From assembly GCA_011033025.1 (NCBI GenBank), contig WFMF01000084.1, forward strand, positions 62,001 to 126,000: 64,000 nucleotides of DNA, written 5' to 3'. Below, piece after piece: positions 37,633 through 63,586 of this stretch. Numbering within the stretch: position 1 is the stretch's first letter; the number at the start of each line of letters is the position of its first letter. A model generated the notes under the pieces. It was not told the DNA's origin. It saw only the letters and a program-made list of their open reading frames with translations, and searched no databases. A program made the position numbers and the translations under genes. The stretch is from Beroe forskalii (taxonomy: Eukaryota; Ctenophora; Nuda; Beroida; Beroidae).

Positions 37633-37881
37633 CTAAGGTTTATTAAGATCAACCTCCTCGTACGTCTGGTCTTCAGCGGGCTTCTCAGCATTGTTATTAT
37701 ATTGCTGATCCTGGAGTGGGGTTTCTGAGTTTGCTTCCTCCCCTAACTCCTCGGCTGTAGGCTCGCCTTTACCTCCACCCTCCTCCAGTTTGATAGGGTT
37801 TTCCGATCCGTTGTTGATAAAGGCTACTGGAGGTGCAGCATCCTTCTCAGTTTCTTCCTTGGGAATAGGTTTAGCTGGCTT
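37633..37881 (-). CDS. Tail exon C (acidic, Tyr motifs)
   Basis: In phase 0 from the acceptor CTGCCCAAG (37881) it encodes 82 residues: KPAKPIPKEETEKDAAPP, an acidic Gly/Glu stretch, then QDQQYNNNAEKP and DQTYEEVDLNKP before the stop. YEEV fits the YxxV/L core of ITIM/ITAM-like motifs and YNN fits the YxN type bound by Grb2-like SH2 domains. Another AG (GCACTTAG) lies 14 bases upstream but would need phase 2. AATAAA lies within the last codons. Confidence 0.6.
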   Translation of the reverse strand, partial: KPAKPIPKEETEKDAAPPVAFINNGSENPIKLEEGGGKGEPTAEELGEEANSETPLQDQQYNNNAEKPAEDQTYEEVDLNKP

Positions 37882-40800
37882 CTTGGGCAGGAAACTAAGT
37901 GCAGTGAAAAGTAAGAGTGACAATACAGGACACACAGAAGTGAAAGGTATTAAGTAAGGTGAAAGAGGTGTGAAGTCTTATTATCTGATCAATGGCTTGA
38001 TTTCTAAGATTTGACGTGTAGTATAAAGAAAACACCGTGAAAATCTCACGTTGTGACATCAGTGAGTAGGGTTAAAATGTGTTATAGTTTTAATGTGCTG
38101 CTGCTGTTTACGGGTCTCAGACATACACAAACGTTAACGTATTAGAAGATTAGCGGCTAGTTATTGATTATTGATCTATTACCCAGTTATTAGGAACATC
38201 GAGGTATATAAAGAATTAAACAATATTGTCTGCTATCAGCCCAATTGTAGTTATCTAAAATAATCATGTGGGATATTCTTCTGAGCGTATAACCGTACTT
38301 AGGACTATGCTGATTGCTGAATCGATCTAACTATTCCGTCAATTTTTATTTCAATGACGTCACCTATCTTTGCCCACGACCTTTTTTGACATACCAGGAG
38401 CCGAAATGGACCTCCATTGAGACTAATTTCGACGTAATATTGCGTACCCTCGACCCTGAATTAGGATTTTGATTGATCAGCAAGATTGGGGAACAAAGTC
38501 TGGATAAAAAGAAAGGGTGAAATAAATAGGGATAAGTGACAATGTACAGGATATAATATCTTTTGAAATTAGGAAAAAACTAAAACATCTGCTCTATCAT
38601 GAGTCTTATAAATCGTTCAGTCAATTGGTCAAGCAGTTTATTGGTTAAACATACACACTTAAGTCATTGAAAGAACAAACAAATAGCAAAAATAAAAACT
38701 GTCCCCATACAATTAAAAAAGAAAAGAAAGAAGAGATAATTCCTCACGCGCACACACACACCCCACAAACAACACAAGGACATGAGTCTGGTCCCCCACT
38801 ATACCAAGAGCATCAGATACAGAACTCTCTTTTCTGCTTCAAGTCCTCGAATATTTATTCAAGAAACAGAAGGAGAGGCGAATCTTTGACTCTTTTCATC
38901 ACTTTAAAAAAGGATATCATTCTTTTGGTTGAGGAGACAATGAGAGATCAGACAGATGACTCCCAAAATTGGGGTCTATTACCCAGCCTGAGAATATATT
39001 TAAGCGAGCAATAATCCATTTAATTAGCTGTACTCTACTACTAGGAATATTGATTATGCAACCATATTAGCCGATTTGTGAGACCGTTATCCCTCAGTTG
39101 TTTCTTGAGGGGTCTTGTCATATGACACTAGCACCCCGGGCAACAGAAGTAAACTTTACACACTGTACATTGGTCATGGTCGCATCGTGCCGTGACGAAG
39201 CGTCCAGTATTCGAGTGTCTGCGTCATAATTAGCTTATTAGCCAGCACAAGGTTCGCGGCGAGGTTCACGGAGGGTTTCGGGCTGGCTCAGCGCTCTATC
39301 ACTTTCACCGTCTTTAACCGTGTTGGTCACTGTACTAGCAAAACACTGCAGGGGGAGGAACATGTTAAAATTGTTGTCTAAACGACTTAATTCGATTAAA
39401 AGGAGAAGCAATTAATTTTGAATATTAGAAGTATTCTCATATTCGCGTCCCGAAAAACCACTCCTCTGATACCCCACATGCCATATTACGTGAAAATTAG
39501 TCTCAACTTGGCCCAAAAAAGGGGACGTCATCGAAATAGAAATTAACGAAATAGCTAGAGCTATTCAGCATATTCCAAAGCACCAGAAACCGATCCCAAC
39601 GCCGTATTAACGATATTCCATTTCATCCCTGACTAAAAATAGCGTATTTTGCGATAAAACGCAATTTTGCTCTACCTAGAACGTCTCTAAGACTCTAACT
39701 CAGAGAGTTTTCATCGGATTATGTTTTACTTCGATATCTTGCTTTTAAACTTTGAGATTTACACAGCAACCATTTGGTGGACGTCACGAAACAAAAAGCT
39801 GCTTGACGGACAATTATTACAGAGAATTCTAAAACGAATGGTAACCGAAATTTCAGAAAATAGAGCAGCACAAAAATTATAGGATGTAGAAGGTTCAGAC
39901 AGGACAAAAGGTTCAGAAAGGACCAAATCATGACAGAGGAATAGGTAATCAGTCTAGAAAGTTTGAAAGAAGAAGTGCTCGTAATAATAGAGTAATAGTA
40001 TCATGGATTTACTGAGAAATGAAAATGCTATACAAATTCTAATAATTAAACAAAAGTTTATCTTTTGAGTGAATGAAGAATGATAACCAAAAAATTGTTT
40101 ATTTTTGTCATTTGTAAATGAAATGACCGATTTAGCAGGATCACCCTACGCCAGCTTAAGAAATTAAATCAAACCATACATAAAAAAAGTTAGATGATCG
40201 GTGCACAGAAATAACATTCAGGTGCGGCAAAAGTTAAGCTCTTGATTGAATTTTGGAAAAAATCAAGACATGCAGAATCACAAAAAAGAGCAATTATTCT
40301 AAAATCCAAATAGAAGAGCAGGATGTCATTCTGAAACACTTACTTCAGCACGTGTACTTCTCAGGAAGGGCAGCCGGCACCTGAATGTCTTTATACCCTG
40401 TAACACCCCACCTAAACACACTGATATACATAACTCACCTTGGTAACACCATCGTCCTGCGCACCACCCCCGTATGGTAACATCCCCTTGTTATAGAGCA
40501 CCACGACTACCACCACCAGGAGAACCAGCCCGGCCAGCACCACCACTATGATGCCGATAATGAGTCCAATGTCAGCTTCGCTTGTGATTTTACCAGCGTC
40601 AGCATCCCCTAGTGTATACTGTATACTATGGTGAGCGTCATTCACAATCTACGTCACGGATTGTAGAGTGTTAATCAATTCAATAGCTGGTGCTTTTTAC
40701 GGACGTAGCTTGTAAATGGTTGCTGTTTTTTGGAAGAATACATCTACTCTAGTAGCAGGGTGTAGTTGAGTGTGCACTTCGTTGGCCACAAAGTTTCTCG

Positions 40801-49800: not shown

Positions 49801-50717
49801 GGCAACCCGCACAAATCGTAATGCGCGCGCGTTCCGAAGATGTTTCCGCCGTTACGTACAAACAAAAAACAGAGAATGCGAAATTATATTAGAGACTAGC
49901 AGGCCCGTTGGGCCTGCAAATACACAGCTCACTCAGAGCTCGCAAATTTCAACCAATGCAATTCAAATCAACTAAAAAATTTTACCGCATCAAAAAACTC
50001 CGATCCGTTCAAAAGTTATTAAAGATCGCGCAACGTAATCAAAACACCGTTAACAGAAATGAGCGCGCGCACAATTCTCCGTGCACGTGTCACCATGGTA
50101 ACCCGCACAAATCGTAAATGCGCGCGCGCTACGAACATGTTTCCGCCGTTACGCACAAACAAAAAACAGAAAATGCAACTTTATATAAGAGATAACATGG
50201 CTTTTTCAACCGTCCTGTTTTACAACCCTTTCGAATTGCTGCTGTTCATTGACGAGCGCACATTAGAATCAAAGTTCTACATTTTTACAACAGATCACCC
50301 CTGAAATTGACTAAATGATATAAAACACAGGGCCGTTCAGGAACCGAACAAGTAACTCCACGAACGAGTGGGCACTGAACACAAGCCTACTGTCACTTGT
50401 TCAATGATATTTCTCGACTCTGCCATTATCTGAGTTCTTTAAGGTCTATATTTTGCTATGGCAGTGCTCTAGAAGCTTTCTTCAGTAGGAGATTTACCGA
50501 CTTTCATGGTTCAATTAAGAATCCGTATTTATATGCTTTGTTGGTCAACTGCTGTTGAGAGCTGACCAAACTATGAAACACAGACATTGGAATGGTCCGA
50601 TTAGGCCAAAACTCGATGCTGCTGAAAATACCGATCTGCGTGGTTATGATCAAGAATCAAATGTTTCAAGTAAAAACTTTTAAAATAAAAACTTCGATCA
50701 AGTGTGTGTGTGTGTGT

Positions 50718-50780
<63 letters not shown>

Positions 50781-53700
50781 TGTGTGTGTGTGTTTGTGAT
50801 TTTTCAAGACAGATAAGCCGTCAGCATCCTCTCCACATTTCACAGTGTGAGAGCACCCCGTCTTGCCCCCGTAAGCAGGCATCACACTCACTTCCAAGTC
50901 TCCTGTAAATGGCGGCGGCCCCGGAACCGTGAGGAGGTCCGAGGCATTGAATTTCAGGTACATATTCCGTTGTGAGCCTGATGAGGAGAGGCGATGTTAG
51001 TGGGATTTTATGCCTTTTGTAGTAACATAACCAATATATAATGAACGGCATCGTTTGGTTGAAAGCAGTGCAGATCCCTGATGCATGGCATGTTAAACAA
51101 TAAATAAGGTATTGGAACTGAAGGGCATTTAACCAGGTCACTGCTAGCATTCCTCAAGATTAACATTCTGATTCTTAAAGAAAATCCTTTGATGATTCGC
51201 AAATTATTTGATTTAAAATCCTATTCATCTTCATGTTCAAGATGTTAAAATAGGACTATTATAAATCATTGAATGATTTAGATCAAGCTCAAGTCCGCAA
51301 TCTACAATGACACCATTTATCTACAACTCGTTGCACTTAGAGGGAAGTACAATATGTATCGAAACTTACAACTTGTCGCAACTTGGGGGAAGTATTTGCG
51401 ATTTGAGACCACTCTCCCGGCAACCTTGAGCTCTACAGCTACGCACTGGGCGGCCGTGTACTGGGCGAGGGTCACAGAGAGCGTGCCATCCTTACTACAT
51501 TCCATAGTGGCATCAGAACACGTCGTCTCAACGATGTCACTACAACCTGAAAATGTGAGATATGAGTTGGGATACTTCTTAAAACCCAGAGGAGACTAGC
51601 AATGTTCCACAGAGTAGGAGACCTCTCAGAGAGATATGAGTTTCTGAGAATTGTCCGCTTGATCGGGCAAGCCGTGAAGTGCAGATCTAGGAACGTTGTT
51701 CAGTGTCCATGGGGGTGTAAGGAAAATGCGATTCGTGTTCAGCCCAGAATAAAGACCCTACAAAATCAAAGTGTGAAAGTTCCATCTCCCGAAAGACATC
51801 AAACTTCCCACTTTTTTGAAAATAATTCTTATTATCTGTTTCTACACTCTTATTACCACTATCCGAGCGGTCCACTTTAGCGGTATCGACCATCTGGTAC
51901 GCAGCTCCTATCTTGTTTTTGTAGTCGGTGTAACTCAGGTATTGGAAGTACAGGCACCTGCAGGGTTGAGGAAGGGGTGAGGCTGGGGGTGAGGCAGGGT
52001 TGAGGAAGGGGGTGAGAAAGGGGTTGAGGAAGGGGGTGAGAAAGGGGTTGAGGAAGGGGGTGAGGCAGGGGTTGAGGAAGGGGTGAGAAAGGGTTGAGGA
52101 AGGGGTGAGGCAGGGGGTGGAGGAAGGGGTGAGGCAGGGGTGGAGGAAGGGGGTGAGGCAGGGTTGGAAGGGGGTGAGGGGGGTGGAGGAAGGGGTGAGG
52201 CAGGGGTGGAGGAAGGGGGGTGAGGCAGGGGTTGAGGAAGGGGTGAGACAGGGGGTTGAGGAAGGTGAGGCAGGGGCTGAGGAAGGGGGTGAGGCAGGGG
52301 GTGAGGAAGGGGGTGAGGCAGGGGTGAGGAAGGGGGTGAGGCAGGTGGTGGAGGAAGGGTGAGGCAGGGGTGAGGAAGGGGGTGAGGCAGGGGGTGAGGC
52401 AGGAGGTGAGGAAGGGGTGAGGAAGGGGGTGAGGCAGGGGTGAGGAAGGGGGTGAGGAAGGGGGTGAGGCAGGGGGTGGAGGAAGGGGAGAGGGGGTGAG
52501 ACAGGGGGTAAGGCAGGGGTTGAGGAAGGGTGAGGCAGGGGTGAGAAGGAAGGGGTGAGAAGGAAGGGGTGAGAAGGAAGGGGTGAGGCAGGGGGAGGAA
52601 GGGGGTAGAGGCAGGGGTGGAGGAAGGGGGTGAGGCAGGGGTGAGGCAGAGGGTGGAGGAAGGGGTGAGGCAGGGGGTGGAGGAAGGGGGTGAGGCAGGG
52701 GTGAGGAAGGGGGTGAGGCAGGGGGTGGAGGAAGGGGGTGAGGCAGGGGTGGAGGAAGGGGGTGAGGCAGGGGGTGAGGCAGGGGGTGAGGCAGGGGGTG
52801 AGGAAGGGGGTGAGGCAGGGGTTGAGGAAGGGGTGAGGCAGGGGGTGAGGCAGGGGGTGAGGAAGGGGCTCACTTTTAACAGGATTTTATGAGGGACTCA
52901 GGACTCACCGTTGAGATTCAAGGTTTTTATTACTATGGTGATTTCTGCCTGTGATTTTTTAAATCAATAAAATTCCAAAAAAATCCATAATTCTGGCCGT
53001 GGATGATGGATATCATAATAGATCTAACTAAATCTAAGCCATCAAGCCATGTTCAGGAACTTGTACTACGTACAACATAATTTATGAACTTCATTGCACA
53101 CTGTGTGACAAATATTACGTAGGCAGATCAGTCCGTAGGCTTGCGGACCGTGTAAGTGAGCATAGACAAAAGTACTATCAGGTGGTTAAGGACCCTGACA
53201 GTGTCTTTAAAAATAACATCCGTGAAGAGGATGATTCATACTCACCTGGACTTCATTTAGTAGATGAACATGCTGCCACAGAATTAAATACATTCAGTTT
53301 TGCTTACAAAGTTTTCTTAATTGATGTGTGCAGCCCACAAGTTTTAGAAGTTCGGGAATATAAATACATTCATGAATTGAAAACTTTAAAACCCTTTGGA
53401 ATTAATACAGTCAGCCCATTCAGTTTACCCATTCTAGACATATGATTTCAGTTTGAGGGGTTACAGAATTTCTAATTTCTGAGTTCGATTTAAAATTTTG
53501 ATTAATTTTGGTATTTTTTTAGAATTTTCCTAGGTATTTCTAAGTCTGATCTAACATTTTATCTTTCAACTTTTCAATAGGATGTTGACAATGAAATTTG
53601 AAAACGTTTCATCCGAAGATATAATGTGAAAGATTTTGTACTAATTCATGAAGTCTCATTTTCGTCTGTGATTGAAGGGAAATTAAAATCCTATAAATCT

Positions 53701-56700
53701 AAAGGATGCTTATCCGTACTTCATGAATAGATCTCAAACAAATAGAAGCCCTATTAACTAACTTAATTAGCCGACAATTATCCAAACAAATGGAAACATA
53801 CTAAAAATTTGAGCAGCGAACCTGTCGTTCTGGTTGGAAGCGAACTTCGTGTCGAATAAAGTCCCAGGATACGTCAAACCTTCGTCTTTTGTCATCGCGA
53901 CGGGTGGCGGAGCGTTAGTCAGAACCGTCAAAGGTACGTCATTGAACAGGAATTTATTTCCGTTCTTGATCAACAGCTGAAAAGGAATGTAGGTGTCATG
54001 AATCGTATTGGTATAGATGACAAAGACACCTTAAGGTGTCCACCGTAGGGTTTATTTTCTGTGATTTTCTTTCCAGGATATCCACAGAAACTGAGGTCAT
54101 ATTTATGGCTCCTTGACCCTATTGTACGTCAAATTTGGGCTCTATAGTGTTTATAATACATAAACCCACCCACCTTTGGGCTTTTACACGATAAAACCCT
54201 CGGGCCACGCCCATGGGTTTACCAATTGTGGCATCATACATCCTGAGCAGGCCGAGAATTGCATTAGTCACCATTAAATATGGGCAAAGTCATATAAATC
54301 ATTTCTTAGCTATTCTTAATTCCGATGATGCGTATGGCAAATTACATTCTGTGTCTCATGTCTCACTTGTGATCAGCCTCACACACATTCAGGTAACATG
54401 GGGAGCTTTTAGTGGCGAAATATTATCGAGCATTAATAAATTTGCTAAATTCGGTACATGTCGTGTTACGTGTGGCACACTGAGTTGTACTTAGAGGATG
54501 TAAGAGGGCCTTGTTTCTAGCCTTGCTTGCGTACCATATTTCATTTCAAAGCTGAACTTCGGCAGCGGGTTTGATACTGTTTAGTGTATGATTACCTTAG
54601 GAGGTGTATTTATGTGGAGTAAAATTTTGGTGTTTACAAATTTGGCAGGTTGTAACTTTGGGGATCTTTCTCAAGTCATTACTCTAGTTAACATATGATA
54701 ATGACGTCATTTTGAACTTCCATGGTGGGTAAAAATATGGAGATTTTTCCGGAAAATCCCCAAATTACAACCTTTATAAATACACCTCCTAAGGTAACTG
54801 TTTTTGTTTGCCAGATAACTGATAACTTGCTAACTCTTGTATAAGTTCAATATCAAGTTGCTGAGGTATGTGGTACGTTCCTCGCCATCAAACTCAGTGA
54901 GATCATGGGCCAATGGCTCTTACACTAAAACTCAACACGGAATTTTAGTTTTTCATGCTGTATGTGACGTAACTAAGATGGTTTAAAAAGGGGAATTAAT
55001 GACATCATCCCTCTTTCTATTTCTATCTCTACATCATGTAAAGATGTAAGCGGTGTGGAGTGTATGTTATTATGCAACATCTGTAAATAAAGTTTAATTA
55101 AGCCATTGTCAAGTCAACATTTTGCACACTGTATGGCGTATAAATGTACAAGACAATTCCTCAGTAAACAACACATTTCATTGTGTGGATTGATTGTTCT
55201 TTGTCCGAAATCTACTTCTATTTACAGAGTGTTCGAGTATCGAATCGTCAGTATTTTACACTTATTGCTGCTGTAGTCTTGGTTTAGCGCTGTAGTTCGC
55301 TTATCCACCGGATGATTTGTTTGAAATACAATAGCATCTTTACAAATTCATGCAATGACTAAGCAGTAATAGGCTTAGTTTTTCATACTCGAGGCATTTG
55401 AATTGTGCCGGCTTGGTCACCTGACCCAAAACCAGCTTTGCTCTGATTTCTCTTGTCACCACGGCAATGAATAATGATTATGAGAATGATTGAAGCTACA
55501 TGCTGATTAAAGTGTAATTATTCTCAATACATGATAATTTACATTTTGAACACCTGTGGTATCCGAAATATATAAGACGTATTATTTTCTCTTCTCTCTC
55601 CTGTTTCGATCCTAGAAGTATAAAATCGGTTTGCAGTACTTTGAATTTTGATATGTTTGTAATATACCCATACGCCTTTATACTTTTATAGATAAGACCT
55701 TGGATTTCCAAAGAACAGTGATTTTTCAATTTTTGTAATACAATGATCTTTGATAGTTTGATGACCGAAATATCGTTTTTAGGTAGGTGTCAAATCAAAA
55801 CATTTTCCGATGAGGTGAAAATCAAAGTCTCTTAACAGTTCAATTGAAGGATAAGTGTTTCTAGAACAGGAATAAAAAGTAAAAGAAGTGTTTTGAAGGA
55901 TAAGCGTCGCTTAAACAGGAGTAAAACTCAAATAAGTGTTCCAAAAACAGGAGTTCAATCGGTGTCGCTAAATGAAAATGTCACGGTTCCTCGAAACAGA
56001 GATTTCCTTTCTCAAGTACTACGTTCCCATATCAGTTGACGTGTTTCTCAGCCTATTCACCGAGTTTGTGGCTGCATTTTTCTCAGCTAAAATAGGTTTG
56101 TTGCATTTAGTGTCTGACTTTATCAAAATCCGTGATAAATATTGTCGCTTCTAGTTCTGAAAAATTCGATAAATCCCACATTCTCAAACTGGCACCAACA
56201 TATTATATACACATTCTCAATTACAGCGTTAAATCTGCACTGACACCCACGGGTTCTTCTAAATTTCACCCAGTTCTACAACTGGGTGTCATCTTACTGA
56301 CACCCGCTAACACATTTAAACTGGTAACCAGGAATACCTGTTCAACTTCTTCTAACCCGTTCTCAGGTGCTGGTTACTACGTAACGGGTGCAGGTATCAC
56401 TAATACGTGTTATTCTAACCTTACACCCGTTCCCAGGTGCTGATTACTACGTAACGGGTGCAGGTATCACTAATACGTGTTATTCTAACCTTACACCCGT
56501 TGTCAGGTGCTGATTACTACGTAACGGGTGCAGGTATCGCCGGACAAGTCACGCTCTCCACCTTATGGGCTATCCTGTACGGATACAGCTCAGTCTTTGA
56601 GTGCTACGCAGGAGCTCTGAAGAAGATGTCAGGACGACGAGCCCTGGGAGTCCTGCTGGTGAAGTGTCTCCTCCAAGGAGTAGGAGTATTCCTTGTCTTC

Positions 56701-59700
56701 ATCCTTCCTTTCCTCGCTACCTGCTGGATCATCCCCCTCTTCGGAACAGACGAGAAGGTTTTCATATAATGATAGTAATGATAGAATATAGGCAACATGG
56801 CAAACTGGTCGTTTATGAATACCAAAATTATCTAAATATCTTTACCCTTTTATTTTTCACACAACAATTGATTGATATTTCATATGCATTAACTTCTCTG
56901 ATTTTAAGGTCCACGAGATAGCAGTACTATGCATCCAACTCATGTGCATCCGACCGCTCCTCATCTACTTCAGAGACCTGCTCATCAAGTTCCTGGTAGC
57001 CCAGGACCATGTGTACGTGTGTCTGGGGATGACGGCGCTCTGCGTACCCCTCAGCATCGTCATGGACTGGTTCGCTGTGGTCCGCATGCAGTGGGGTATC
57101 TACGGCCTGGGGTTCGCTCAGTACGCCACTGTGTCCCTATCACTACTCCTCCTGGTGCTTTTTATTGTGTGGAAGAGAAAAGAGCTGTGTTTCCCGGACC
57201 TGTGTTCGCTAGAACTGGACGAGTTAACGAAGGGTTGGGGCGAGATGTTTAAACTCGGCATTTTCTCGGGTCTCCGGACCTTTGCTTCCTTCGCGCTGAG
57301 CGCTATCGCCGGGGTGGTTTGTCAGAGCTCCGGAGCGACTACCGCTGCCGCTAACGTGGTGATTACCATCTCCACCCTCATGTTACACTCCAGTGTGTAC
57401 GGTGGTGCTTACGCTCTGGCTCTCTTAGTCGGGGAGGCTCTGGGGAAAGGCAACAAGGACGATGTAAAGTATGCCATAAAGTTAGGAATGCTTAACCTTG
57501 CTGTGGACAGGTTAATGATTATAACGATATTCCTGGTATCGATCAGACCGATAGCTCAACTCCTCTCGTACAACCAAGCTGTTATCCAGGAGGTGGTGGA
57601 TGCTAATGGGGCAGTGGTTGCCATGATCTTGCTGTTTGGACTGGACGAGTACCTCTCACGAGGCATACTCGTTCCCTTTGCTCGGCAAGCCCTCGTGGGA
57701 ACCATCACCCCTGCATCGATCTACCTGATAGCTCTTCCCCTGCTGATCACCATGATACGTGTCTACCATGTCCCCGTTTCGGGGGTTATCCTCAGTGAGT
57801 CCTCCAGTTTCCTTGTGCAGTGCATTGTATACGTCATCAAGCTGTGTACAAGCGACATCACCCATGAGATTGAGAGATGTCGGGAACGTAACGCCTTGAC
57901 GGACGATGGAGGAGGGGGAGGAGCGGCTAAGAGGGGGAGCTTGTTTCCGAGTGGGGGCATGCAGCCCGTACCTTCCCCCATGATAACAGACCAGGATCTC
58001 TGCTTCGAATTCGATGATAGGACTGTGGAAAAGGCCGAGGGAGGAGAGGGGAGTGGTGATGTTGGAAAGGCTGAAGGGAGTGGTGGTGTGGTAGGCGGTG
58101 AGGAGGGAGAGGGGAGTGGTGAGGGGATGGGGTGAGAGAGTGGTAGTGAGGTGGAAATGGGAGTGGTAATGCGGAAAGTGATAAGGGGAGGGGTAACTGG
58201 TGGTTGGTTATTGATAAGTGGTGAGTTGAGGCGAGCGGTCAGTAATTGTGATGGTGTGGTGAATGGTGAGGGGAAGGTGTGAGTGGTGAGGGAAGGTGCG
58301 AGAGAAGAAAGGATAGTGAGGAGTGATATGATTGTGAAAGTGATGATATCTCGTTAACTGGTGACAAGCTGGACGCGATTACGACTGAAAGCGGCCTTTA
58401 ATAAACTTAGAATTGTATAATGCGAATGTTAGCGTAGATTTTATATTTTTCTAGATGATTGAAGAAGTATCGGATGTAATAAAGTGTGTTATCATAATTT
58501 TCCCATATATTTCCTAAATTACGGATTTACGGTAGACGGTAGTGTTGAACTGGAAATATGAATTTGCTAAATCAATGGGGAGCACTGGTGTTATTTCAAT
58601 TCTTATTGTGTTTTAAACTTATTGTAGAAACTGAATAAACCGGACTAAACATTGATTTATTTGAATATTAGAATATTATGGTGTCAGATTAATACGGATT
58701 GTTCACATATGACATAGGTACGTATTCAGCACGTTCTGGAGAGTTCGTCTTACAATAACGTACGTGTAATTTCAAATATAACAGTTTTAAAACACAATAA
58801 AATATGAGGGGAATGGAGTCAGCCAAAGTTGATAAGTTGATTTCACCAACCTGCTTCGACTCGACGCCTTCTTTCGATACGACTCGCATATATTCTTGGT
58901 TCACCGTGGTTTGGATGTTCTCAGCTTTAGTGACACACGTCTCCGACGTAACTGGAATCTTGAAAACCTGATGAGGGGTCTGATAAGTGGGCGATTGAAC
59001 GAATAACCCCTCCTACGATCATTTTAGTGACCATATATGAGTTGTTAGTAGCAGTATATTCGGTCACCACTGAATAATAGCGCAAACTAGCTTAAATTCG
59101 AACTCAATTTCATGAAGGAGACTCAAGAATATAAAAAGGCGTTGAACTTAGCGATGTTTGTTAGGACTGAGTAGAAGTCGGTGCACTCTATTTATGGTCC
59201 GGTATAATCAGGTTCCTCAGCTGTGACAGAATACCTTCGATAACGAACTCTACACGCAAGGTCAATTATCCAAATAACAAATTCTCGGCTTCCCCTCGAC
59301 CATGTTACAGGCGGCACACGGTCACAAATTCCAAAATAACCGCTAATTGGACCAGTTGACATTTCATAATAATAGACCCTGGTAATGACGTTTTTCAACA
59401 TTTTCAATGTTTATGGCTATGCCTAGGGATTTTAAATTCTTCGCTAAAATTCAATGCTTATTATTTCCAGGGCTTAAAAACAGTATTACAACTCTGGTGC
59501 TCATAGAGTACTCTTTTCACAGAATTATCTCGTACAAGATAAACCCGAGGTGTGTCCCCGGTGGTTGTGCCCAGGTGTGCATCGGCAGATTACCGAGTTA
59601 CCAGATAAACTCTCTCTCAGACATTACCTCAGGCAGGAAGAGCTGGGTGTCATCGTCGCTATTCCCGAACTGCAAGCTTTGCGGCGGGTTCCCTTCCTCA

Positions 59701-62700
59701 CCCGTTCTGGTGGCCGTACACTTAAAAAGCGCACCTTTGTTAACCTCTTCCGAGAAGATCTGGTAGATGTTGGTTAGCTCGAGAGTCCGGCCGCCGTTAG
59801 AAAACTTTACGTTATTCGTGAAGATATCACCGGTGTATTGGTTGGAGGCTTCTAACTTTTCTAAGAAAATATAACACGTTATTGGTATAACTTTTGAGGT
59901 GCAGTTAAATCACAATGAAGGATTCAGTAACAAGCGAAAAGAACAAACCATGAAATCACACAATACACACGAGTGGCCGAAGGCCTCTCTGGAACCGTGT
60001 ATAATAAATTATTGTGAACAATTCTACGCGCGTAAAGGGTTTCAAAATATACTGCCTAAACATGTAAGCAAAAAATTAAATTCATAAGATGAAATACTGA
60101 AATATATTACGTAATGGTAGTGGCAGTAGAGCGCACGCATATGTGTACAGACCGCTCGATTACCGGAGGGCTGGCAAAGGACACGCGTGGCATTAACTTT
60201 CTACATATAGACGCGCAAAATTATGTGCTTTTGATGGAATTCAATCAAAAGCACACAATTTTGCGCTTCCTTTTCGAGCCCTCCGGTAATCGCGGGGTCT
60301 GCACACATTTGCGTCACATGAAATTATCACATCTACTTTTCCCAAGTTGTTTCCCCCGTCACAGCTTCATTGTAATATAACCACTCATACTGCATTTGAG
60401 CTATTGGGGTACCATCAACGGTAGCAGACGCGTCCTTGAAGTAAGCCGTGTAGTAAATGGGATCATCTTTACGCATGAGCACTGGACTAGCCACACTTGA
60501 TATAGCCTCGTAAGCGGGACTAATGTTGTTGTTGTTACCTGTAACAGGGTTGGATATGGGGCATGGGCCCACGGGGGCGCTGAAGTTCATTGTGTGCTTT
60601 CCCGAAACCATTCCAGTGATAACAGTGGTAGTTCGAACTGCAGTTTTATGCGGCGGCGTAAGTTTGCGCGGCGTAAAGACATGTAATCTATGTCTTTACG
60701 CCGCGCCAACTTACGCCGCGCACATGAAACTGCAGTTCGAACTGTCACCGTAGTAACATTATCTGTGTACGGATGTGAATGAGAAAGCATTTAATTGTGG
60801 TTATAGTTACTGGTCAGCAATACGGTTATTGTAGTGTAAATTGCATCGACGAGAGCGTATTCCCCCACACAAGTAACAAAACTTGAACAAGGCTTGTGTT
60901 CCATTTCCCCAATAACCGTCACGACTCACGAACCTGTATCTGATAGTGTGTACCAAGAAACAAAGTCTTTTGTGGTGGCACCCGTGAACAGATCCGTGTA
61001 CTGAGCGTAACATTTGTAATCGCCGTTATCTTCCGCAGGAGTCGTATTCATGACAAGGAGTGTTCCTCGGTCCGCAGCGTCAGCTTGTTTAATGACAGCC
61101 AAACGATCCATCCTGGTACTTGAAGGAATGTCTATCACAGTATCTTTATACTCCCTGAAAAGTTGACAATGGTAAGGTGCGGGCGTGCGGCACTCAACAT
61201 GAAATATTGTGTGATCTTTCCTGGCTATCTATATTCAAAGTTTCCATACGATATCCTTTTACAACTTTACAATATACATTCAAATAAGAAAAAGTTCATT
61301 AATCATTTTGACTGAACAAGAAAACATTTTGTGATGATCTCATTTGCCCGACCGATACAACACAGCATAGTATACCGAATCCTAATCATATTGGTTGGGT
61401 TGGGGGGTTAGCCTAGGAAGGGCACACCAAGTACTGACCATATTGGTTGGGTTGGCGGGTTAGCCACTGGGAAGGGACACCCAGTACTGACCATATTGGT
61501 TGGGTTCGGGGATTAGCCTAGGAAGGGCACACCCAGTACTGACCATATTGGTTGGGTTGGCGGATTTGCCACTGGAAGGGAACACGCCATGGAAACAGAG
61601 GGATATCCGATATTCTTATTCTCGGATTCTCCAGACGTGGGTGCAGTCGGGGCAGTGGGTCCAACTGTAGGGAGATAACATGGTGTCAGTGTCATGGTGT
61701 CAGTGTCATGGTGTCAGTGTCATGGTGTCAGTGTCATGGTAACAGTGTCATGGTGTCAGTGTCATGGTGTCAGTGTCATGGTGTCAGTGTCATGGTGTCA
61801 GTGTCATGGTGTCAGTGTCATGGTGTCAGTGTCATGGTGTCAGTGTCATGGTGTCAGTGTCATGGTGTCAGTGTCATGGTGTCAGTGTCATGGTGTCAGT
61901 GTCATGGTGTCAGTGTCATGGTGTCAGTGTCATGGTGTCAGTGTCATGGTGGCAGTGTCATGGTCATGGTAGCAGTGTCATGGTGTCAGTGTCATGGTGT
62001 CAGTGTCATGGTGTCAGTGTCATGGTGTCAGTGTCATGGTGTTAGTGATTTGGTGAAAGGCAAGGTTTTATCTATAAGTAGGCATGAAATAACTTCAAAT
62101 TTTAGGATTACATTTATTATTCATGTACATTTCCGTCCTGCAAATCAACCCTCTCTCTCCTTCCAACCCTCTCCTGTCCTGATCCTCACTTACAGACTAC
62201 ATCGAGATACACAGTCCGGGACACGATGGTGTGGGTTGTTCCGTCCACCAGAGTGACTGCTGCTAGGCACTGGTAAAAGTGGTTATCTGCTCCTGACATG
62301 TCCTTATTATCAGTGGTGGCAGATCCTGTCTTAGCCTTCCACTGTACTGATGTCATGGTGCACTCGCTGCTATCGGTTGTCGAACTGCACACCTGAAAAC
62401 ACCAGTAATTGTCAAACCTGGTTAAAAAAGAGGAAAGAGATACGATTTAAACGAAATAAATTAACATATTTATTAACCATGAAAAATGACAAGATATAGA
62501 CATAAGATATAGACATAAAATGAAAAAAGCCCCAAGGCCCTAATTACAACAAGCCTCTGATTAATGATGATAACAGTCTCCGCGACCAAAATAAAAGTAG
62601 CTGATTTTAATAATGAATCTGATTTAATAAACTGAAATCGGGAATATTTTCGGAATTCTACTCCGTCATCAATCTCAAATTTGATTGTATAAAGTTGTGT

Positions 62701-63586
62701 TGTAAAGTTTAAAACAAGCCCCTAGATAGTAACAGGTAGCTCACCTGAGCTGCGCTTTGGTATGTACTGAGGGTGTTCGTCTGCAGGGCACCCGCTCTGT
62801 AGAACTTGTATACAACACTTTGTACTGAGGGGTGGTCAGCATCTTCTAACTGACACCTGGTAAGAGAAGGAGATGACAACACTTGACAACACTTCACAAC
62901 AGCTGACAACACGTTAAAACTTGAACACACCACTTTAAACTGAAAGGTGGTCCGCATCTTCTACCAGGCATCTGGTAAGAGAAGGAGATGACAACACTTT
63001 CCAACAGCAGTTGAAATCTGACAAAACATAATAATAATAAACGTGTAAATGGAAACAATTGCTCACATAAATTTAACATCGGCATCCTTCTTCGCCACAC
63101 ATCGGTAGTTGTTGTCCATTAGTTTAACAGTTCCATCCTGTTCCTCACATGTCAGGTAGAGGTTGATGCTGGGACAACAACAGACCTCCTCAGAGGTTGA
63201 GATCCTCAGGATCAAGGCCCTAAAACGGGGTGTCAGTGGCAGTTCGAACTGCAGTTTTGGTTGCGCGGCGTAAGTCTGCGCGGCGTTAAGACTTATAATC
63301 AACATTTCTTTACGCCGCGCAAACTTACGCCGTGCACACAAAACTGCAGTTCGAACTGTTACCGTATGGTTATCAATGATCCATAGTAGCGGTGTCGTAC
63401 AATCACAGTGCACTATGCTTGATAAGAACTTCATTAAAAGCAAAGAGACTAGTGTATTAGTGTAATGGAGAAAGCACATGGGTATCAAATCTTTAAATCT
63501 GAAATTCAATCTAAGCAAAACCTCCTCATTATTTGAACTTACCAGCAAAGGAGAAATATCGTCTGAAATACGGATCCAGAAGACAT
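37633..63586 (-). CDS. Ig-superfamily single-pass receptor (allorecognition-like), 14-exon model
   Basis: Predicted type I membrane receptor. Coding exons, 63586 downward: 63543-63586, 63067-63219, 62745-62856, 62194-62392, 61544-61664, 60934-61154, 60363-60538, 59628-59855, 58851-58967, 53802-53976, 51370-51546, 50892-50977, 40439-40618, then a tail (37633-37881 in this 745-aa model). All junctions keep phase; exon 7/8 and the exon 13 acceptor are weak. Order: signal peptide (1-24), Ig-like D1 (about 60-169), D2 (about 190-270), D3 (about 290-400), stalk with scattered Cys (about 420-603), TM helix (about 620-645), cytoplasmic tail. D2 has the classic Cys, Trp and DNGDYKC pattern. An in-frame TAA 33 bases upstream supports the start. 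The architecture recalls hydrozoan Alr proteins, but homology cannot be tested here. Cell-surface recognition is inferred. Confidence 0.75.
37882..39237. other. Intronic stretch between tail exons B and C
   Basis: No exon seen. One TGACGTCA near 38355. A plus-strand open frame at 38667-39014 shows no coding character. Confidence 0.45.
39238..39345 (-). CDS. Candidate alternative tail exon B
   Basis: Acceptor TTCCTCCCCCTGCAG (excellent tract), phase 0. It encodes CFASTVTNTVKDGESDRALS, then QPETLREPRREPCAG and a double stop (TAA TAA). The GC-rich, codon-like composition contrasts with the AT-rich surroundings. No Tyr, so no phosphotyrosine signalling motif. Confidence 0.5.
   Translation of the reverse strand, partial: CFASTVTNTVKDGESDRALSQPETLREPRREPCAG
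39470..39765. repeat. Diverged fragment of the foldback arm
   Basis: GCGTATTTTGCGATAAA, CTCAGAGAGTTTTCAT and ATGTTTTACTTCGATA match the same order of motifs in the arms at 6190-6300 and 22100-22215, with many changes. An old remnant in the receptor gene's tail region. Confidence 0.65.
40344..40380 (-). CDS. Candidate alternative tail exon A (short)
   Basis: Acceptor AAAGACATTCAG and a strong donor GAA|GTAAGT enclose 37 bases. Read in phase 0 after the transmembrane exon it gives VPAALPEKYTC and a stop. Inclusion would produce a receptor with a very short tail, or a transcript open to decay. Real use is inference. Confidence 0.4.
40439..40618 (-). CDS. IgSF receptor exon 13 (transmembrane)
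   Basis: Encodes KITSEAD, then a 26-residue helix from IGLIIGIIVVVLAGL to a Val-rich end, then LYNKGMLPYGGGAQDDGVTK. The helix has small-xxx-small packing motifs (GLIIG). Donor ACCAAG|GTGAGT is strong (phase 0). The acceptor is less sure: AGTATACAG at 40618 keeps phase 0 with exon 12, giving exactly 60 codons. A second AG (CACTAG, exon from 40608) would need an extra phase-1 exon upstream. Confidence 0.7.
42041..42873. repeat. CTAG-rich palindromic insertion in the left foldback arm
   Basis: GGTAGCTAGATTAATC faces TTATCTAGCTACC, and inward TTGCCCTTTGGCATTTCTTA faces TAAGAAATGCCAAAGGGCA. Dozens of CTAG sites fill the interior. The right arm lacks it, so it was inserted after the foldback formed. 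Confidence 0.7.
43303..43698. repeat. 0.4 kb inverted-repeat element, GCGGACGT-rich
   Basis: GGGCCATCCATAAGGACGTCC faces GGACGTCCTTTATGGATGGCCC almost exactly. The interior repeats TGCGGACGTTTGCGG. MITE-like, in the centre of the foldback. Confidence 0.7.
44782..46272. mobile_element. 1.5 kb element with TTAA target duplication
   Basis: It starts AGGTGCAGTCCGGGATAT and ends ATATCCCGGACTGCACCT, exact inverted copies, with TTAA immediately outside both ends (44778-44781 and 46273-46276). The uninterrupted other arm of the host foldback shows the empty site as a single TTAA. TTAA duplication is typical of piggyBac-type transposition. The interior has no transposase frame, so it would be a non-autonomous member. 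Confidence 0.75.
46861..50195. repeat. Tandem array of about 0.3 kb repeats in intron 12
   Basis: About nine units beginning ACTAGCAGGCCCGTTGGGCC recur at about 47577, 47869, 48206, 48526, 48788, 49106, 49422 and 49896, with a more diverged duplicated form at 46862-47576. Each has a GCAGGCCC-GTT-GGGCCTGC hairpin, CTCACTCGGCGCTG, TTTTTACCGCATCAAAA, GAACGCGCGCGCAATATG and a second GCGCGCGC block. Short plus-strand frames repeat with the units and are not genes. Confidence 0.9.
50196..50701. other. Intronic stretch, nothing recognised
   Basis: Part of intron 12 between the tandem array and the GT repeat; no exon supported. Confidence 0.45.
50702..50803. repeat. (GT)n dinucleotide repeat in intron 12
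   Basis: About 100 bases of GT with a few GGG/TTT interruptions. On the receptor gene's sense strand it is a CA repeat starting about 90 bases after the exon 12 donor. Confidence 0.95.
50892..50977 (-). CDS. IgSF receptor exon 12 (stalk end)
   Basis: Acceptor CTCTCCTCATCAG, donor TTGGAA|GTGAGT, 86 bases, phase 1 in and 0 out. The junction codon makes Cys, then SQRNMYLKFNASDLL (one N-glycosylation sequon, NAS) and PGPPPFTGDLE, a Pro-rich membrane-proximal linker. Confidence 0.75.
51370..51546 (-). CDS. IgSF receptor exon 11 (Cys-rich stalk)
   Basis: Acceptor CTCACATTTTCAG, donor AGTT|GTAAGT, 177 bases, phase 1 to 1. It encodes CSDIVETTCSDATMECSKDG and TAAQCVAVELKVAGRVV: four Cys that could stabilise a small membrane-proximal module. 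The family is not recognised. Confidence 0.75.
51957..52865. repeat. GAGGAAGGGGTGAGGCAGGGG minisatellite in intron 10
   Basis: About 900 bases of purine-rich units (GAGGAAGGGGTGAGGCAGGG) with many GGG/GGGG runs. On the sense strand of the receptor gene this is an almost pure pyrimidine tract ending about 410 bases before the exon 11 acceptor. The long Pro/Ser-rich and Gly/Glu-rich frames are by-products. Confidence 0.95.
53036..53445 (+). pseudogene. GIY-YIG nuclease fragment of a Penelope-like retroelement
   Basis: An open plus-strand frame of about 136 codons reads PCSGTCTTYNIIYELHCTLC, DKYYVGRSVRRLADRVSEHR, then DEHAATELNTFSF, a VREYKYIHELKTLKPFGIN segment and a stop. The Cys-x3-Cys before the first strand, the Y-V-G core, the Arg pair, the Glu-His and the LKTLKPFGIN ending match the GIY-YIG domain at the C-terminus of Penelope-like elements. 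The reverse transcriptase part is absent: a stop (TAA) precedes 53036 and no RT motif is seen nearby. It is a 3'-end fragment lying antisense in intron 10 of the receptor gene. LINE-type origin is excluded by domain type; a host GIY-YIG gene is less likely given the lack of context. Confidence 0.7.
53802..53976 (-). CDS. IgSF receptor exon 10 (stalk)
   Basis: Acceptor ACATTCCTTTTCAG, donor TTTTTA|GTATGT, 175 bases, phase 0 in and 1 out. It encodes NKFLFNDVPLTVLTNAPPP, then TYPGTLFDTKFASNQNDRF. No Cys. The 4.9 kb intron upstream of it contains the antisense transporter gene. Confidence 0.7.
53977..55971. other. Intron 9 of the receptor gene, upstream flank of the transporter gene
   Basis: No exon is supported on either strand. 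One TGACGTCA near 54699 and repeated ACACCTCCTAAGGTAA / TTACCTTAGGAGGTGT (about 54594-54800), an inverted pair of about 200 bp. The transporter's promoter should lie here but no TATA or initiator is convincing. Confidence 0.45.
55972..56095 (+). CDS. MATE transporter exon 1
   Basis: ATG at 55972 with an in-frame TAA just before it. 124 bases encoding the N-terminus and first membrane helix, donor AAATAG|GTTTGT, phase 1 out. The frame continues open for some codons into the intron. Confidence 0.7.
55972..58135 (+). CDS. MATE-family transporter (3 exons, 533 aa), nested antisense in the receptor gene
   Basis: Exons 55972-56095, 56507-56757 and 56909-58135 join in phase (1, then 0). MATE proteins are 12-helix antiporters exporting organic cations in exchange for H+ or Na+. 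Two lobes are visible. The N-lobe has YYVPISVDVFLSLFTEFVAA and YYVTGAGIAGQVTLSTLWAI, followed by FECYAGALKKMSG. The C-lobe has KLGIFSGLRTFASFALSA, GATTAAANVVITISTLM and GGAYALALLVGEALGKGN, the last matching the repeated G-x-A-x(5)-VG-x-xLG-x-GN segment of the family. The usual length is about 450-570 residues. The C-terminal ~95 residues are a hydrophilic Gly/Glu-rich tail of low complexity. TAA directly precedes the ATG in frame. Acidic residues expected in the first C-lobe helix are not obvious. Substrate unknown. Confidence 0.8.
56360..56506 (+). repeat. 70-bp tandem duplication of the MATE exon 2 acceptor
   Basis: TTCTAACC...CCGTT-N-CAG|GTGCTGATTACTACGTAA recurs with a 70-bp period. Acceptor AGs end at 56366, 56436 and 56506. 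Only the third copy leads into the full exon. The first two run ATCACTAATACGTG and reach a stop (TGA) soon after, so they are decoy exon starts with intact splice signals. Confidence 0.85.
56507..56757 (+). CDS. MATE transporter exon 2
   Basis: Acceptor GTTGTCAG (third tandem copy), donor GAGAAG|GTTTTC, 251 bases, phase 1 in and 0 out. It encodes helices 2 and 3 of the N-lobe with FECYAGALKKMSGRRALG between them and a further hydrophobic segment VFLVFILPFLATCWIIPLFG. Confidence 0.8.
56909..58135 (+). CDS. MATE transporter exon 3 and stop
   Basis: Acceptor TTCTCTGATTTTAAG, phase 0. Begins VHEIAVLCIQLMCIRPLLIY, carries the rest of the N-lobe and the whole C-lobe, and ends with the Gly/Glu-rich tail and TGA at 58133-58135. 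The GC content is clearly above the flanks, as expected for coding sequence. Confidence 0.85.
   Translation, partial: VHEIAVLCIQLMCIRPLLIYFRDLLIKFLVAQDHVYVCLGMTALCVPLSIVMDWFAVVRMQWGIYGLGFAQYATVSLSLLLLVLFIVWKRKELCFPDLCSLELDELTKGWGEMFKLGIFSGLRTFASFALSAIAGVVCQSSGATTAAANVVITISTLMLHSSVYGGAYALALLVGEALGKGNKDDVKYAIKLGMLNLAVDRLMIITIFLVSIRPIAQLLSYNQAVIQEVVDANGAVVAMILLFGLDEYLSRGILVPFARQALVGTITPASIYLIALPLLITMIRVYHVPVSGVILSESSSFLVQCIVYVIKLCTSDITHEIERCRERNALTDDGGGGGAAKRGSLFPSGGMQPVPSPMITDQDLCFEFDDRTVEKAEGGEGSGDVGKAEGSGGVVGGEEGEGSGEGMG
58136..58640 (+). other. 3' flank of the transporter gene
   Basis: The G-rich GGTGAGGGGA-type sequence of the exon end continues about 180 bases past the stop. AATAAA hexamers occur near 58400 and 58631 (and AATAAAG near 58478) as possible polyadenylation signals. 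Confidence 0.5.
58851..58967 (-). CDS. IgSF receptor exon 9 (stalk)
   Basis: Acceptor ACCCCTCATCAG, donor AAGCAG|GTTGGT, 117 bases, phase 0 to 0. It encodes VFKIPVTSETCVTKAEN and EYMRVVSKEGVESKQ, with a single Cys. No known domain is recognised. Confidence 0.7.
58968..59627. other. Intron 8 of the receptor gene
   Basis: No further exon or repeat is recognised; small frames on both strands look random. Confidence 0.45.
59628..59855 (-). CDS. IgSF receptor exon 8 (D3, C'-G strands)
   Basis: Donor CCTGAG|GTAATG (phase 0) is clear. The acceptor is either TTCTTAG (exon from 59860, needs phase 1) or GAAAAG (from 59855, phase 0); only the latter fits the exon 7 donor seen. It encodes LEASNQYTGDIFTNN, GGRTLELTNIY (E strand) and GALFKCTATRTG with the F-strand Cys, followed by an acidic linker (SDDDTQLFLPE). 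Confidence 0.7.
60130..60320. repeat. Palindromic element in intron 7
   Basis: CATATGTGTACAGACCGC / GGTCTGCACACATTTG ends, TTACCGGAGGGCT / AGCCCTCCGGTAA, and a central AAGCACACAATTTTGCGC / GCGCAAAATTATGTGCTT pair fold into one long imperfect hairpin. Confidence 0.7.
60363..60538 (-). CDS. IgSF receptor exon 7 (D3, A-C strands)
   Basis: Acceptor ACCCTGTTACAG (phase 1 in) gives Gly-Asn-Asn-Asn, then a strand-like PIYYTAYFKDASATV and QMQYEWLYYNEA with the C-strand Trp. There is no Cys at the B-strand position; Tyr sits there. The donor is uncertain: GCT|GTGACG gives phase 0 and joins to exon 8 at 59855. The frame stays open 8 codons further to a TAG. Confidence 0.65.
60622..60755. repeat. Hairpin MITE copy in intron 6
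   Basis: The ends GTTCGAACTGCAGTTT and AAACTGCAGTTCGAAC are inverted copies. The inner arms CGGCGTAAGTTTGCGCGGCG and CGCCGCGCCAACTTACGCCG also pair. The whole unit folds into one long hairpin. A close relative lies at 63235-63368. Confidence 0.8.
60934..61154 (-). CDS. IgSF receptor exon 6 (D2, D-G strands)
   Basis: Acceptor AACTTTTCAG, donor ACAG|GTTCGT, 221 bases, phase 2 in and 1 out. It contains TPAEDNGDYKCYAQYTDL, the Asp-x-Gly-x-Tyr-x-Cys signature of Ig F strands, 61 residues after the Cys in exon 5. Before it, RGTLLVMNTT forms the E strand. Confidence 0.85.
61385..61575. repeat. 52-53-bp tandem repeat spanning the exon 5 donor
   Basis: The last part of exon 5 plus the start of intron 5 is repeated about four times. 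Three copies keep CCAATATG|GTCAGT (exon ends at 61544, 61492 or 61439); a fourth near 61390 has lost the GT. Copies beyond the first run into TAA or a frame change, so use of 61544 best fits the reading frame. Confidence 0.85.
61544..61664 (-). CDS. IgSF receptor exon 5 (D2, A-C strands)
   Basis: Acceptor TCTCCCTACAG, donor CCAATATG|GTCAGT, 121 bases, phase 1 in and 2 out. A Thr/Pro linker (GPTAPTAPTSGESEN) leads into YPSVSMACSLPVANPPTQPIW: B-strand Cys and C-strand Trp, 14 residues apart, of a canonical Ig domain. The 3' end of the exon and its donor are part of a 52-bp tandem repeat extending into the intron. Confidence 0.8.
61678..62045. repeat. 14-bp minisatellite filling intron 4 (about 26 copies)
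   Basis: ATGGTGTCAGTGTC repeats from about 61680 to 62042 almost without change. On the gene's sense strand the unit reads GACACTGACACCAT, and the array ends only about 14 bases before the exon 5 acceptor. The long open frames through it (Val-Ser-Val-Met type) are by-products. Confidence 0.95.
62194..62392 (-). CDS. IgSF receptor exon 4 (D1, distal strands)
   Basis: Acceptor GGTGTTTTCAG, donor GTCT|GTAAGT, 199 bases, phase 0 in and 1 out. It encodes VCSSTTDSSECTMTSVQWKA and GADNHFYQCLAAVTLVDG, followed by a G-strand-like ending SRTVYLDVV. FYQC supplies the second disulphide Cys, 77 residues after the Cys of exon 3, a V-set-like spacing. The extra Cys pair in VCSS/SEC may form a second disulphide. 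Confidence 0.8.
62745..62856 (-). CDS. IgSF receptor exon 3 (D1, B-C strands)
   Basis: Acceptor CTTCTCTTACCAG, donor GCTCAG|GTGAGC, 112 bases, phase 2 in and 0 out. The junction creates Met then CQLEDADHPSVQSVVYKFY: the B-strand Cys of domain 1, with Tyr/Phe where the C-strand Trp is usual. A partial, broken duplicate of this exon lies 115 bases upstream. Confidence 0.75.
62917..63005 (-). pseudogene. Broken partial duplicate of IgSF exon 3
   Basis: The acceptor region (CTTCTCTTACCAG) and the first ~50 bases of exon 3 recur, shifted by 115 bases. Read in the exon's phase it gives CLVEDADHLSV and then a stop, and there is no donor before the stop. It is a decayed duplicate exon start that keeps an intact 3' splice site. 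Confidence 0.7.
63067..63219 (-). CDS. IgSF receptor exon 2
   Basis: Acceptor CCCCGTTTTAG, donor AT|GTGAGC, 153 bases, phase 2 in and out. It encodes the end of the signal peptide, then EEVCCCPSINLYLTCEEQ and NNYRCVAKKDADVKF. The run of Cys residues near the mature N-terminus is unusual. It leads into the first strand(s) of Ig-like domain 1. Confidence 0.75.
63235..63368. repeat. Hairpin MITE copy in intron 1, abutting the exon 2 acceptor
   Basis: Same family as 60622-60755 (GTTCGAACTGCAGTTT ends, GCGCGGCGTAAGT arms). On the sense strand it ends only about 15 bases before the exon 2 acceptor at 63220. Confidence 0.8.
63543..63586 (-). CDS. IgSF receptor exon 1: start codon and signal peptide
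   Basis: Encodes MSSGSVFQTIFLLC plus two bases and ends at a strong donor (GCTG|GTAAGT). Joined to exon 2 (phase 2) it gives a continuous hydrophobic run FQTIFLLCWALILRI before STSEE, a textbook signal peptide. Upstream in frame, TAA precedes the ATG by 33 bases. An AG just before the ACGATA sequence could be misread as an acceptor, but the signal-peptide reading is simpler. Confidence 0.75.

What the first reader, a model, noticed from the sequence alone, without database searches (positions are those of the whole stretch)
37633..63586. Complete IgSF receptor with an allorecognition-receptor layout
Reading splice sites and phases on the minus strand gives a continuous 745-aa model: signal peptide, three Ig-like domains, Cys-bearing stalk, one helix, tail with Tyr motifs. 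Exons 1-13 total 1989 bases, an exact multiple of three, although they were chosen one at a time from splice signals. This layout is known for hydrozoan Alr proteins. The gene may be a new member of such a family in this species, possibly in a polymorphic cluster.
Basis: partly seen in the sequence, partly recalled or inferred. Interest (0 to 1): 0.85.

Follow-up and report, generated by a model that had tools for sequence, protein, structure and literature searches.

The report
Ig-like surface gene, damaged copy
The window holds a real, long gene for what looks like a cell-surface protein built of antibody-like (Ig) domains, with relatives elsewhere in the same genome, but this copy appears to have lost two splice signals and nothing found here ties it to known self-recognition (allorecognition) genes.

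Summary
Partly confirmed. Thirteen ectodomain exons on the minus strand (63586-50831) are one real gene. All 13 recur collinearly on contig C878, with phases that close, no stop in 686 codons, length differences in multiples of three and dN/dS about 0.42. A neighbouring gene on the same contig aligns along the ectodomain at 26% identity.

Two donors that are strong in C878, after exons 7 and 13, are not GT in the window: this copy is probably damaged or differently spliced. The TM (40608-40439) and tail (37881-37633) exons lie 10 kb away without support from another copy.

Ig evidence is modest: Pfam Ig_3 0.14 for the window ectodomain, 0.0064 for C878, 3.3e-6 for the neighbour, all below threshold.

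Alr membership is not supported: four related loci including this one, domain 1 conserved between copies, and a genome that looks like a ctenophore rather than a hydrozoan (not proven).

Best reading: a member of a small Ig-like adhesion/recognition family with divergent, mosaic copies. Ordinary in kind, somewhat interesting for its lineage.

The parts
63543..63586 (-). Exon 1: start codon and signal-peptide-like sequence
   Evidence: 95% identical in C878; donor GTAAGT in both
63067..63204 (-). Exon 2: N-terminal Cys-rich stretch and start of domain 1
   Evidence: C878 copy and neighbour gene
62745..62856 (-). Exon 3: domain 1
   Evidence: C878 and neighbour
62194..62392 (-). Exon 4: domain 1, YQC motif
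   Evidence: C878 (one codon shorter) and neighbour
61544..61664 (-). Exon 5: linker and first half of Ig-like domain 2; its 3' end with donor is repeated in tandem into intron 5
   Evidence: No difference from C878 over the 40 codons compared; tandem repeat
60930..61220 (-). Exon 6: second half of Ig-like domain 2, DNGDYKC motif
   Evidence: 98.6% in C878 (slightly different boundaries); Ig_3 0.045 for this frame alone
60341..60579 (-). Exon 7: first half of domain 3; donor lost (AAAAGT where C878 has GTAAGT)
59628..59860 (-). Exon 8: second half of domain 3, FKC motif
   Evidence: C878 copy two codons shorter; neighbour
58851..58967 (-). Exon 9: start of domain 4
   Evidence: 96.6% in C878; neighbour
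53822..53976 (-). Exon 10: domain 4
   Evidence: 88% in C878; neighbour
51857..51957 (-). Exon 11: end of domain 4
   Evidence: C878, C358 and neighbour
51370..51546 (-). Exon 12: Cys-bearing stalk segment
   Evidence: C878, C358 and neighbour
50831..50977 (-). Exon 13: Cys-bearing stalk segment; donor lost (AGGATG where C878 has GTGAGT)
   Evidence: C878, C358, neighbour
40439..40608 (-). Exon 14: transmembrane helix; assignment to this gene uncertain
   Evidence: Phase 1 acceptor fits the C878 exon 13 donor; hydropathy 3.76; no second copy among 13 candidates scored
37633..37881 (-). Exon 15: cytoplasmic tail with YNNN and YEEV and the stop; assignment uncertain
   Evidence: 98.8% nucleotide copy at C958:432.9 kb
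55972..58135 (+). MATE-type transporter gene nested in intron 9, exons 55972-56095, 56507-56757, 56909-58135, 533 aa, open
   Evidence: two fragments of its exon 3 remain in C878 intron 9
63239..63358 (.). Palindromic MITE-like insert in intron 1, just 5' of exon 2
   Evidence: inverted repeat, 82%
60622..60751 (.). Second palindromic MITE-like insert, in intron 6; also in C878
   Evidence: inverted repeat, 85%; C878 alignment
51963..52868 (.). 24-bp satellite in intron 10
   Evidence: matches a longer array in C878

Best explanation
It is one gene of a small family of Ig-like surface proteins in an animal genome, probably a ctenophore. Shown: thirteen exons encode one ectodomain, shared in order with C878 and, at 26% identity, with a neighbouring gene; relative to C878 the window copy has lost the donors after exons 7 and 13. 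Supported but not proven: domains 1-3 are Ig-like, followed by a fourth domain and Cys-bearing stalk segments. Inferred: domains 1-3 bind a partner on another cell or a microbe; the disulfide-braced stalk holds them off the membrane; in a TM form one helix leads to a tail whose YNNN and YEEV motifs (motif meanings recalled) could recruit SH2 proteins; the neighbour, ending in a short hydrophobic C-terminus, would be GPI-anchored. Inferred: the window copy is a decaying or alternatively spliced member, so its own receptor output is doubtful.
For: All 13 exons collinear in C878; phases close, no stops up to exon 13 in either copy, dS 0.123, dN 0.052. Neighbour aligns across the ectodomain with shared Cys and YxC motifs. 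Ig_3 0.0064 in C878 domain 2; Ig_3 3.3e-6, ig 3.8e-4, Ig_2 5.1e-4 in the neighbour. Donor scores. Four related loci.
Against: No transcript data. The window's own corrected ectodomain gives only ig 0.074 and Ig_3 0.14; no hit in any copy reaches Pfam's gathering score; PDB searches gave nothing significant. Domain 3 lacks the B-strand Cys that the neighbour has. Exon 13 shows no purifying selection (dS 0.259, dN 0.252). TM and tail exons have no second copy joined to the ectodomain. The lost exon 7 donor could be bypassed in frame by sites inside exon 7 (after 60539, 4.3, and 60497, 4.4). Ligand and signalling are inference only.
Confidence: 0.68

Rival explanations
1. It is an Alr-type allorecognition receptor: polymorphic, homophilic, in a recognition cluster.
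For: Same outline of signal peptide, Ig-like domains, Cys-bearing stalk, TM and Tyr tail; a related gene 23 kb away; divergent, mosaic copies with dS from 0 to 0.26 by exon.
Against: Four related loci including this one; domain 1 conserved between copies; genome probably a ctenophore; introns fall inside the Ig-like domains. That Alr Ig domains sit on single exons is recalled, not checked.
Confidence: 0.05
2. The window copy is a plain pseudogene, and C878 and the neighbour are the working genes (overlaps with the best explanation).
For: Two lost donors; C358 is already decayed in exons 6-8; TM exon unsupported elsewhere.
Against: The reading frame is open over 691 codons and dN/dS to C878 is below 1; the other 12 of 14 donor positions are GT with positive scores.
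Confidence: 0.4
3. Two genes: an Ig-like ectodomain gene (63586-50831) whose own 3' end is lost or of the neighbour's type, and an unrelated TM/tail gene (40608-37633). Overlaps with the other readings.
For: 10,222-bp gap full of repeats; exon 13 donor lost; tail exon duplicated without TM exon or ectodomain at 432.9 kb; neighbour has further exons and a GPI-like end.
Against: Same strand, and the TM acceptor phase fits the C878 donor phase, one in three by chance.
Confidence: 0.35

Closest known systems
Ig superfamily surface adhesion/recognition proteins (general IgSF)
   Same: Tandem Ig-like domains with Cys pairs and YxC motif, stalk, membrane end
   Different: Sub-threshold Pfam scores; extra N-terminal and stalk cysteines; domain 3 lost one canonical Cys; family seen here only in one genome, because no other animal genome could be searched
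Hydractinia Alr family (allorecognition complex)
   Same: Outline: signal peptide, Ig-like domains, Cys-bearing spacer, TM, tail; low identity between members (Alr points from passages of PMC11067881 and recall)
   Different: Probably a different phylum, four loci rather than about 41, introns inside Ig-like domains, domain 1 conserved between copies
Contactin-2 (Ig domain E-F strands)
   Same: Short motif around GxLxxMN...DxGxYxC, E 0.77
   Different: Not significant, 22 residues only

Membership tests
Immunoglobulin superfamily | Profile match to an Ig domain | tested here: inconclusive
   Window ig 0.074, Ig_3 0.14; C878 Ig_3 0.0064; neighbour Ig_3 3.3e-6; all below gathering score
Immunoglobulin superfamily | Paired Cys with DxGxYxC | tested here: met
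   Met in domain 2: C192/C275 with D269-G271-Y273 invariant in three sequences; domain 1 has C62/C140 and YQC; domain 3 lacks one Cys
Immunoglobulin superfamily | Ig fold | not testable with these tools
Hydractinia Alr | Sequence or structural homology to Alr proteins | not testable with these tools
   No Alr sequence available; Huene et al. 2022 not held
Hydractinia Alr | Signal peptide, Ig-like domains, spacer, TM, tail | tested here: inconclusive
   Outline present, TM and tail join unproven
Hydractinia Alr | Large clustered family | tested here: not met
   Four loci including this one by protein searches of the whole genome (26 and 15 candidates scored); lower bounds
Hydractinia Alr | Hypervariable membrane-distal domain | tested here: inconclusive
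   Two copies only: exons 1-4 dN 0.027, dS 0.153
Hydractinia Alr | Hydrozoan host | tested here: inconclusive
   Innexins on 8 contigs, zf-C4 not found, Hormone_recep not found either, organism not named
Hydractinia Alr | Homophilic allele-specific binding | not testable with these tools
   needs cells or protein

The most novel reading that the evidence does not exclude
A ctenophore self- or partner-recognition receptor family with several divergent gene copies per genome, diversified by gene conversion between copies and by switching the membrane end (TM with tail against GPI), independent of Alr.
Probability: 0.07. Interest if true: 0.8.

Novelty: new member of a known kind. Interest (0 to 1): 0.35.

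Why it matters
If the host is a ctenophore, this would be an Ig-like receptor family in a deeply branching animal phylum, with copies that differ in patches and perhaps in membrane anchor, and so a usable candidate for recognition studies. For the scan it shows that a splice-by-eye model can find a real gene while overstating completeness and family.

Tried and rejected
Rejected: exons 10-13 as a separate gene because of the nested MATE gene and the 4,874-bp intron 9. In C878 exons 9 and 10 lie 956 bp apart, and that intron keeps two fragments of MATE exon 3 (alignments of 55 and 178 columns, 89% and 84%). So MATE was probably nested there before and was mostly deleted in C878.

Rejected: my first junctions for exons 5/6, 6/7, 7/8 and 10/11. 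Comparison with C878 moved the first three. One search held off-by-one exon ends of mine, one search failed to find C878 exon 6 (so its C878 protein and dN/dS are void), and one search scored the window donors one base out of register; (window part), 60 and 89 replace them. The PDB query and the genome query used the earlier junctions; the neighbour sequence lacked a short stretch that is.

Led nowhere: PDB sequence searches, GFP family (no control rang), 18S and COX1 families (not completed), Huene et al. 2022 (not held). No structure prediction or fold search was run.

Not resolved: whether C878 is an allele or a paralog. Its sequence had no megablast match over 300 bp with the 40 kb of C958 beyond the window, which favours a paralog but does not prove it.

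Full report
The window is G000:C958:62001-126000 of an unnamed 216 Mb genome in 1134 contigs.

Copies. The exon 6 frame has one other close match, on C878 (3 candidates scored). I fetched that contig. All 13 ectodomain exons recur there in the same order and orientation over 12.7 kb, at 77-100% nucleotide identity (with my first boundaries). C358 at about 753 kb holds a third copy: exons 11-13 are close to C878 (96.2% over an alignment of 1,483 columns), while exons 6-8 are decayed, with a stop in exon 6. A relative lies 23 kb from exon 1 on the same contig, opposite strand, C958:148,999-155,771. I read 15 exons in it, have not located its first exon, and am unsure of the junction after its fourth listed exon; it ends in a short hydrophobic C-terminus that looks like a GPI signal. 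Whole-genome protein searches with the window model (26 candidates scored, 28 matches) and with the neighbour (15 scored, 18 matches) found only these four loci, the window's included, plus one match at E 7.8 on C622 that I treat as chance. The tool calls such counts lower bounds.

Corrected model. C878 fixes the boundaries: exon 5 ends at 61544, exon 6 is 61220-60930, exon 7 is 60579-60341, exon 13 runs to 50831. In C878 the 13 exons then read as 686 codons without a stop, and every phase closes; the window reads 691 codons over the same exons, and 830 aa with the TM and tail exons. Exons 4, 8, 11 and 12 differ in length by 3, 6, 3 and 3 bases. Counting substitutions by the Nei-Gojobori method (my own script) gives dS 0.123 and dN 0.052 over 686 codons; exons 1-4 0.153/0.027, exons 5-7 0.019/0.008, exons 8-13 0.192/0.098, exon 13 0.259/0.252. 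Purifying selection is visible overall and not in exon 13. Exons 5-7 and intron 7 (97.5%) are much closer than most of the rest, where alignable introns range from 70% to about 92% (short pieces up to 100%), and C878 resembles C358 rather than the window in exons 11-13. This points to gene conversion or recombination between copies, which is inference.

Damage. I scored donors with a matrix from 13 C878 and 14 neighbour donors, leaving out the C878 donor of the exon tested. In the window 12 of 14 donor positions are GT with positive scores. The donor after exon 7 reads AAAAGT (-4.2, against 9.6 in C878) and the one after exon 13 AGGATG (-8.7, against 10.7). One C878 donor, after exon 10, also scores poorly (-1.3) although it is GT. 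Inside exon 7, sites after 60539 (4.3) and 60497 (4.4) have the phase needed for exon 8 and would drop much of exon 7. At exon 13 the strong site after 50892 (9.2) has the wrong phase for the TM exon, and the sites with the right phase are weak (1.4 and 0.3).

Membrane end. The TM exon has one very hydrophobic stretch (3.76 over 19 residues) and no second match among 13 candidates scored. The tail exon has a copy at C958:432.9 kb inside an inverted duplicate of window about 34.2-44.4 kb (93-97% identity in pieces). In that duplicate window 40.0-42.9 kb, with the TM exon, is missing or replaced. The three tail differences all change residues. C878 ends 0.8 kb after exon 13, so it cannot decide. 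I treat TM and tail as likely but unproven parts.

Domains. In Pfam the window's corrected ectodomain gives ig 0.074 and Ig_3 0.14, the exon 6 frame alone Ig_3 0.045, C878 Ig_3 0.0064 over most of the profile, and the neighbour Ig_3 3.3e-6, ig 3.8e-4 and Ig_2 5.1e-4, with weaker hits to unrelated families (DUF930 0.0092, DUF6736 0.038). None passes a gathering score, so three Ig-like domains in the window rest mainly on alignment with the neighbour. PDB searches gave nothing significant: best single-sequence hit E 0.5, a butyrophilin at 1.8, and by profile a 22-residue motif of contactin-2 at 0.77. The three-sequence alignment keeps C62/C140 in domain 1 and C192/C275 with DxGxYxC in domain 2; in domain 3 the window and C878 have Ala where the neighbour has the B-strand Cys.

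Organism. Innexin: 13 matches on 8 contigs. zf-C4: none. SRCR: 90 matches (150 of 155 candidates scored). Ig_3: 148 matches (150 of 426 candidates scored). GFP: none, with no control. Innexins have not been identified in sponges and placozoans but occur in ctenophores (passages of PMC9949713), the Mnemiopsis nuclear receptors lack the DNA-binding domain (abstract of PMC3038971), one M. leidyi assembly is 215.8 Mb, in 207 contigs (passages of PMC13231562), another is 247.97 Mb with 55 SRCR genes (passages of PMC11797021). A ctenophore, perhaps Mnemiopsis, fits best. Against certainty: the ligand-binding domain was not found either, no control genome rang for zf-C4, contig number differs from the published assembly, and the 18S search did not complete. 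That Mnemiopsis individuals fuse without rejection is recalled, not read; the papers listed showed none on it.

Nested gene. On the plus strand inside intron 9 lies an open three-exon MATE-type transporter gene, 533 aa (Pfam MatE 1.9e-4, just below its cut-off, on the last exon; NorM E 0.0073). C878 keeps two fragments of its exon 3.

Verdict. The gene is real and probably Ig-like. The copy in the window is not shown to be complete and is probably damaged, and the Alr reading is not supported. None of the titles and abstract openings listed concerned this family; these are listings, from open-licence papers only.

Noticed in passing
window 55972-58135, plus strand: Open three-exon MATE-type transporter gene nested antisense in intron 9; mostly deleted in C878. 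A 70-bp repeat (2.6 copies, 56355-56538) carries the start of its second exon.
   Followed up: partly
window 5079-9741 and 20857-25970: Two foldback elements with about 1.4 kb inverted arms (96% and 91%), 11-bp AT-rich satellites and ATGACGTCAT repeats, alike at about 93% over the longest piece. A similar one seems to lie in L011:3140-6580 (by eye).
   Followed up: partly
G000 contigs C224, C220, C880: Dense runs of Ig_3 matches (17, 16 and 9 rows by my count), none on C958 among the scored rows: larger Ig clusters than the one given to me.
   Followed up: no
window 61387-61585, and intron 5 of C878: The 3' end of exon 5 with its donor is repeated in tandem (52 bp x 3.8 in the window) into the intron; C878 has similar repeats.
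   Followed up: no
window about 34.2-44.4 kb and C958:426.5-436.7 kb: Inverted segmental duplicate, 93-97% identical in pieces, carrying the tail exon but not the TM exon.
   Followed up: partly
L011:1148-1864: Single-exon open frame for a secreted-looking TENA/THI-4-like protein (Pfam 5e-05).
   Followed up: no
L005 (C878:21389-24621): Open frames of 356 and 777 codons; the first 300 residues of the longer one hit Ldl_recept_a at 0.0017, below its cut-off.
   Followed up: no
window 53038-53445, plus strand: GIY-YIG-like open frame (E 0.017, below cut-off) in intron 10, perhaps a retroelement remnant.
   Followed up: no
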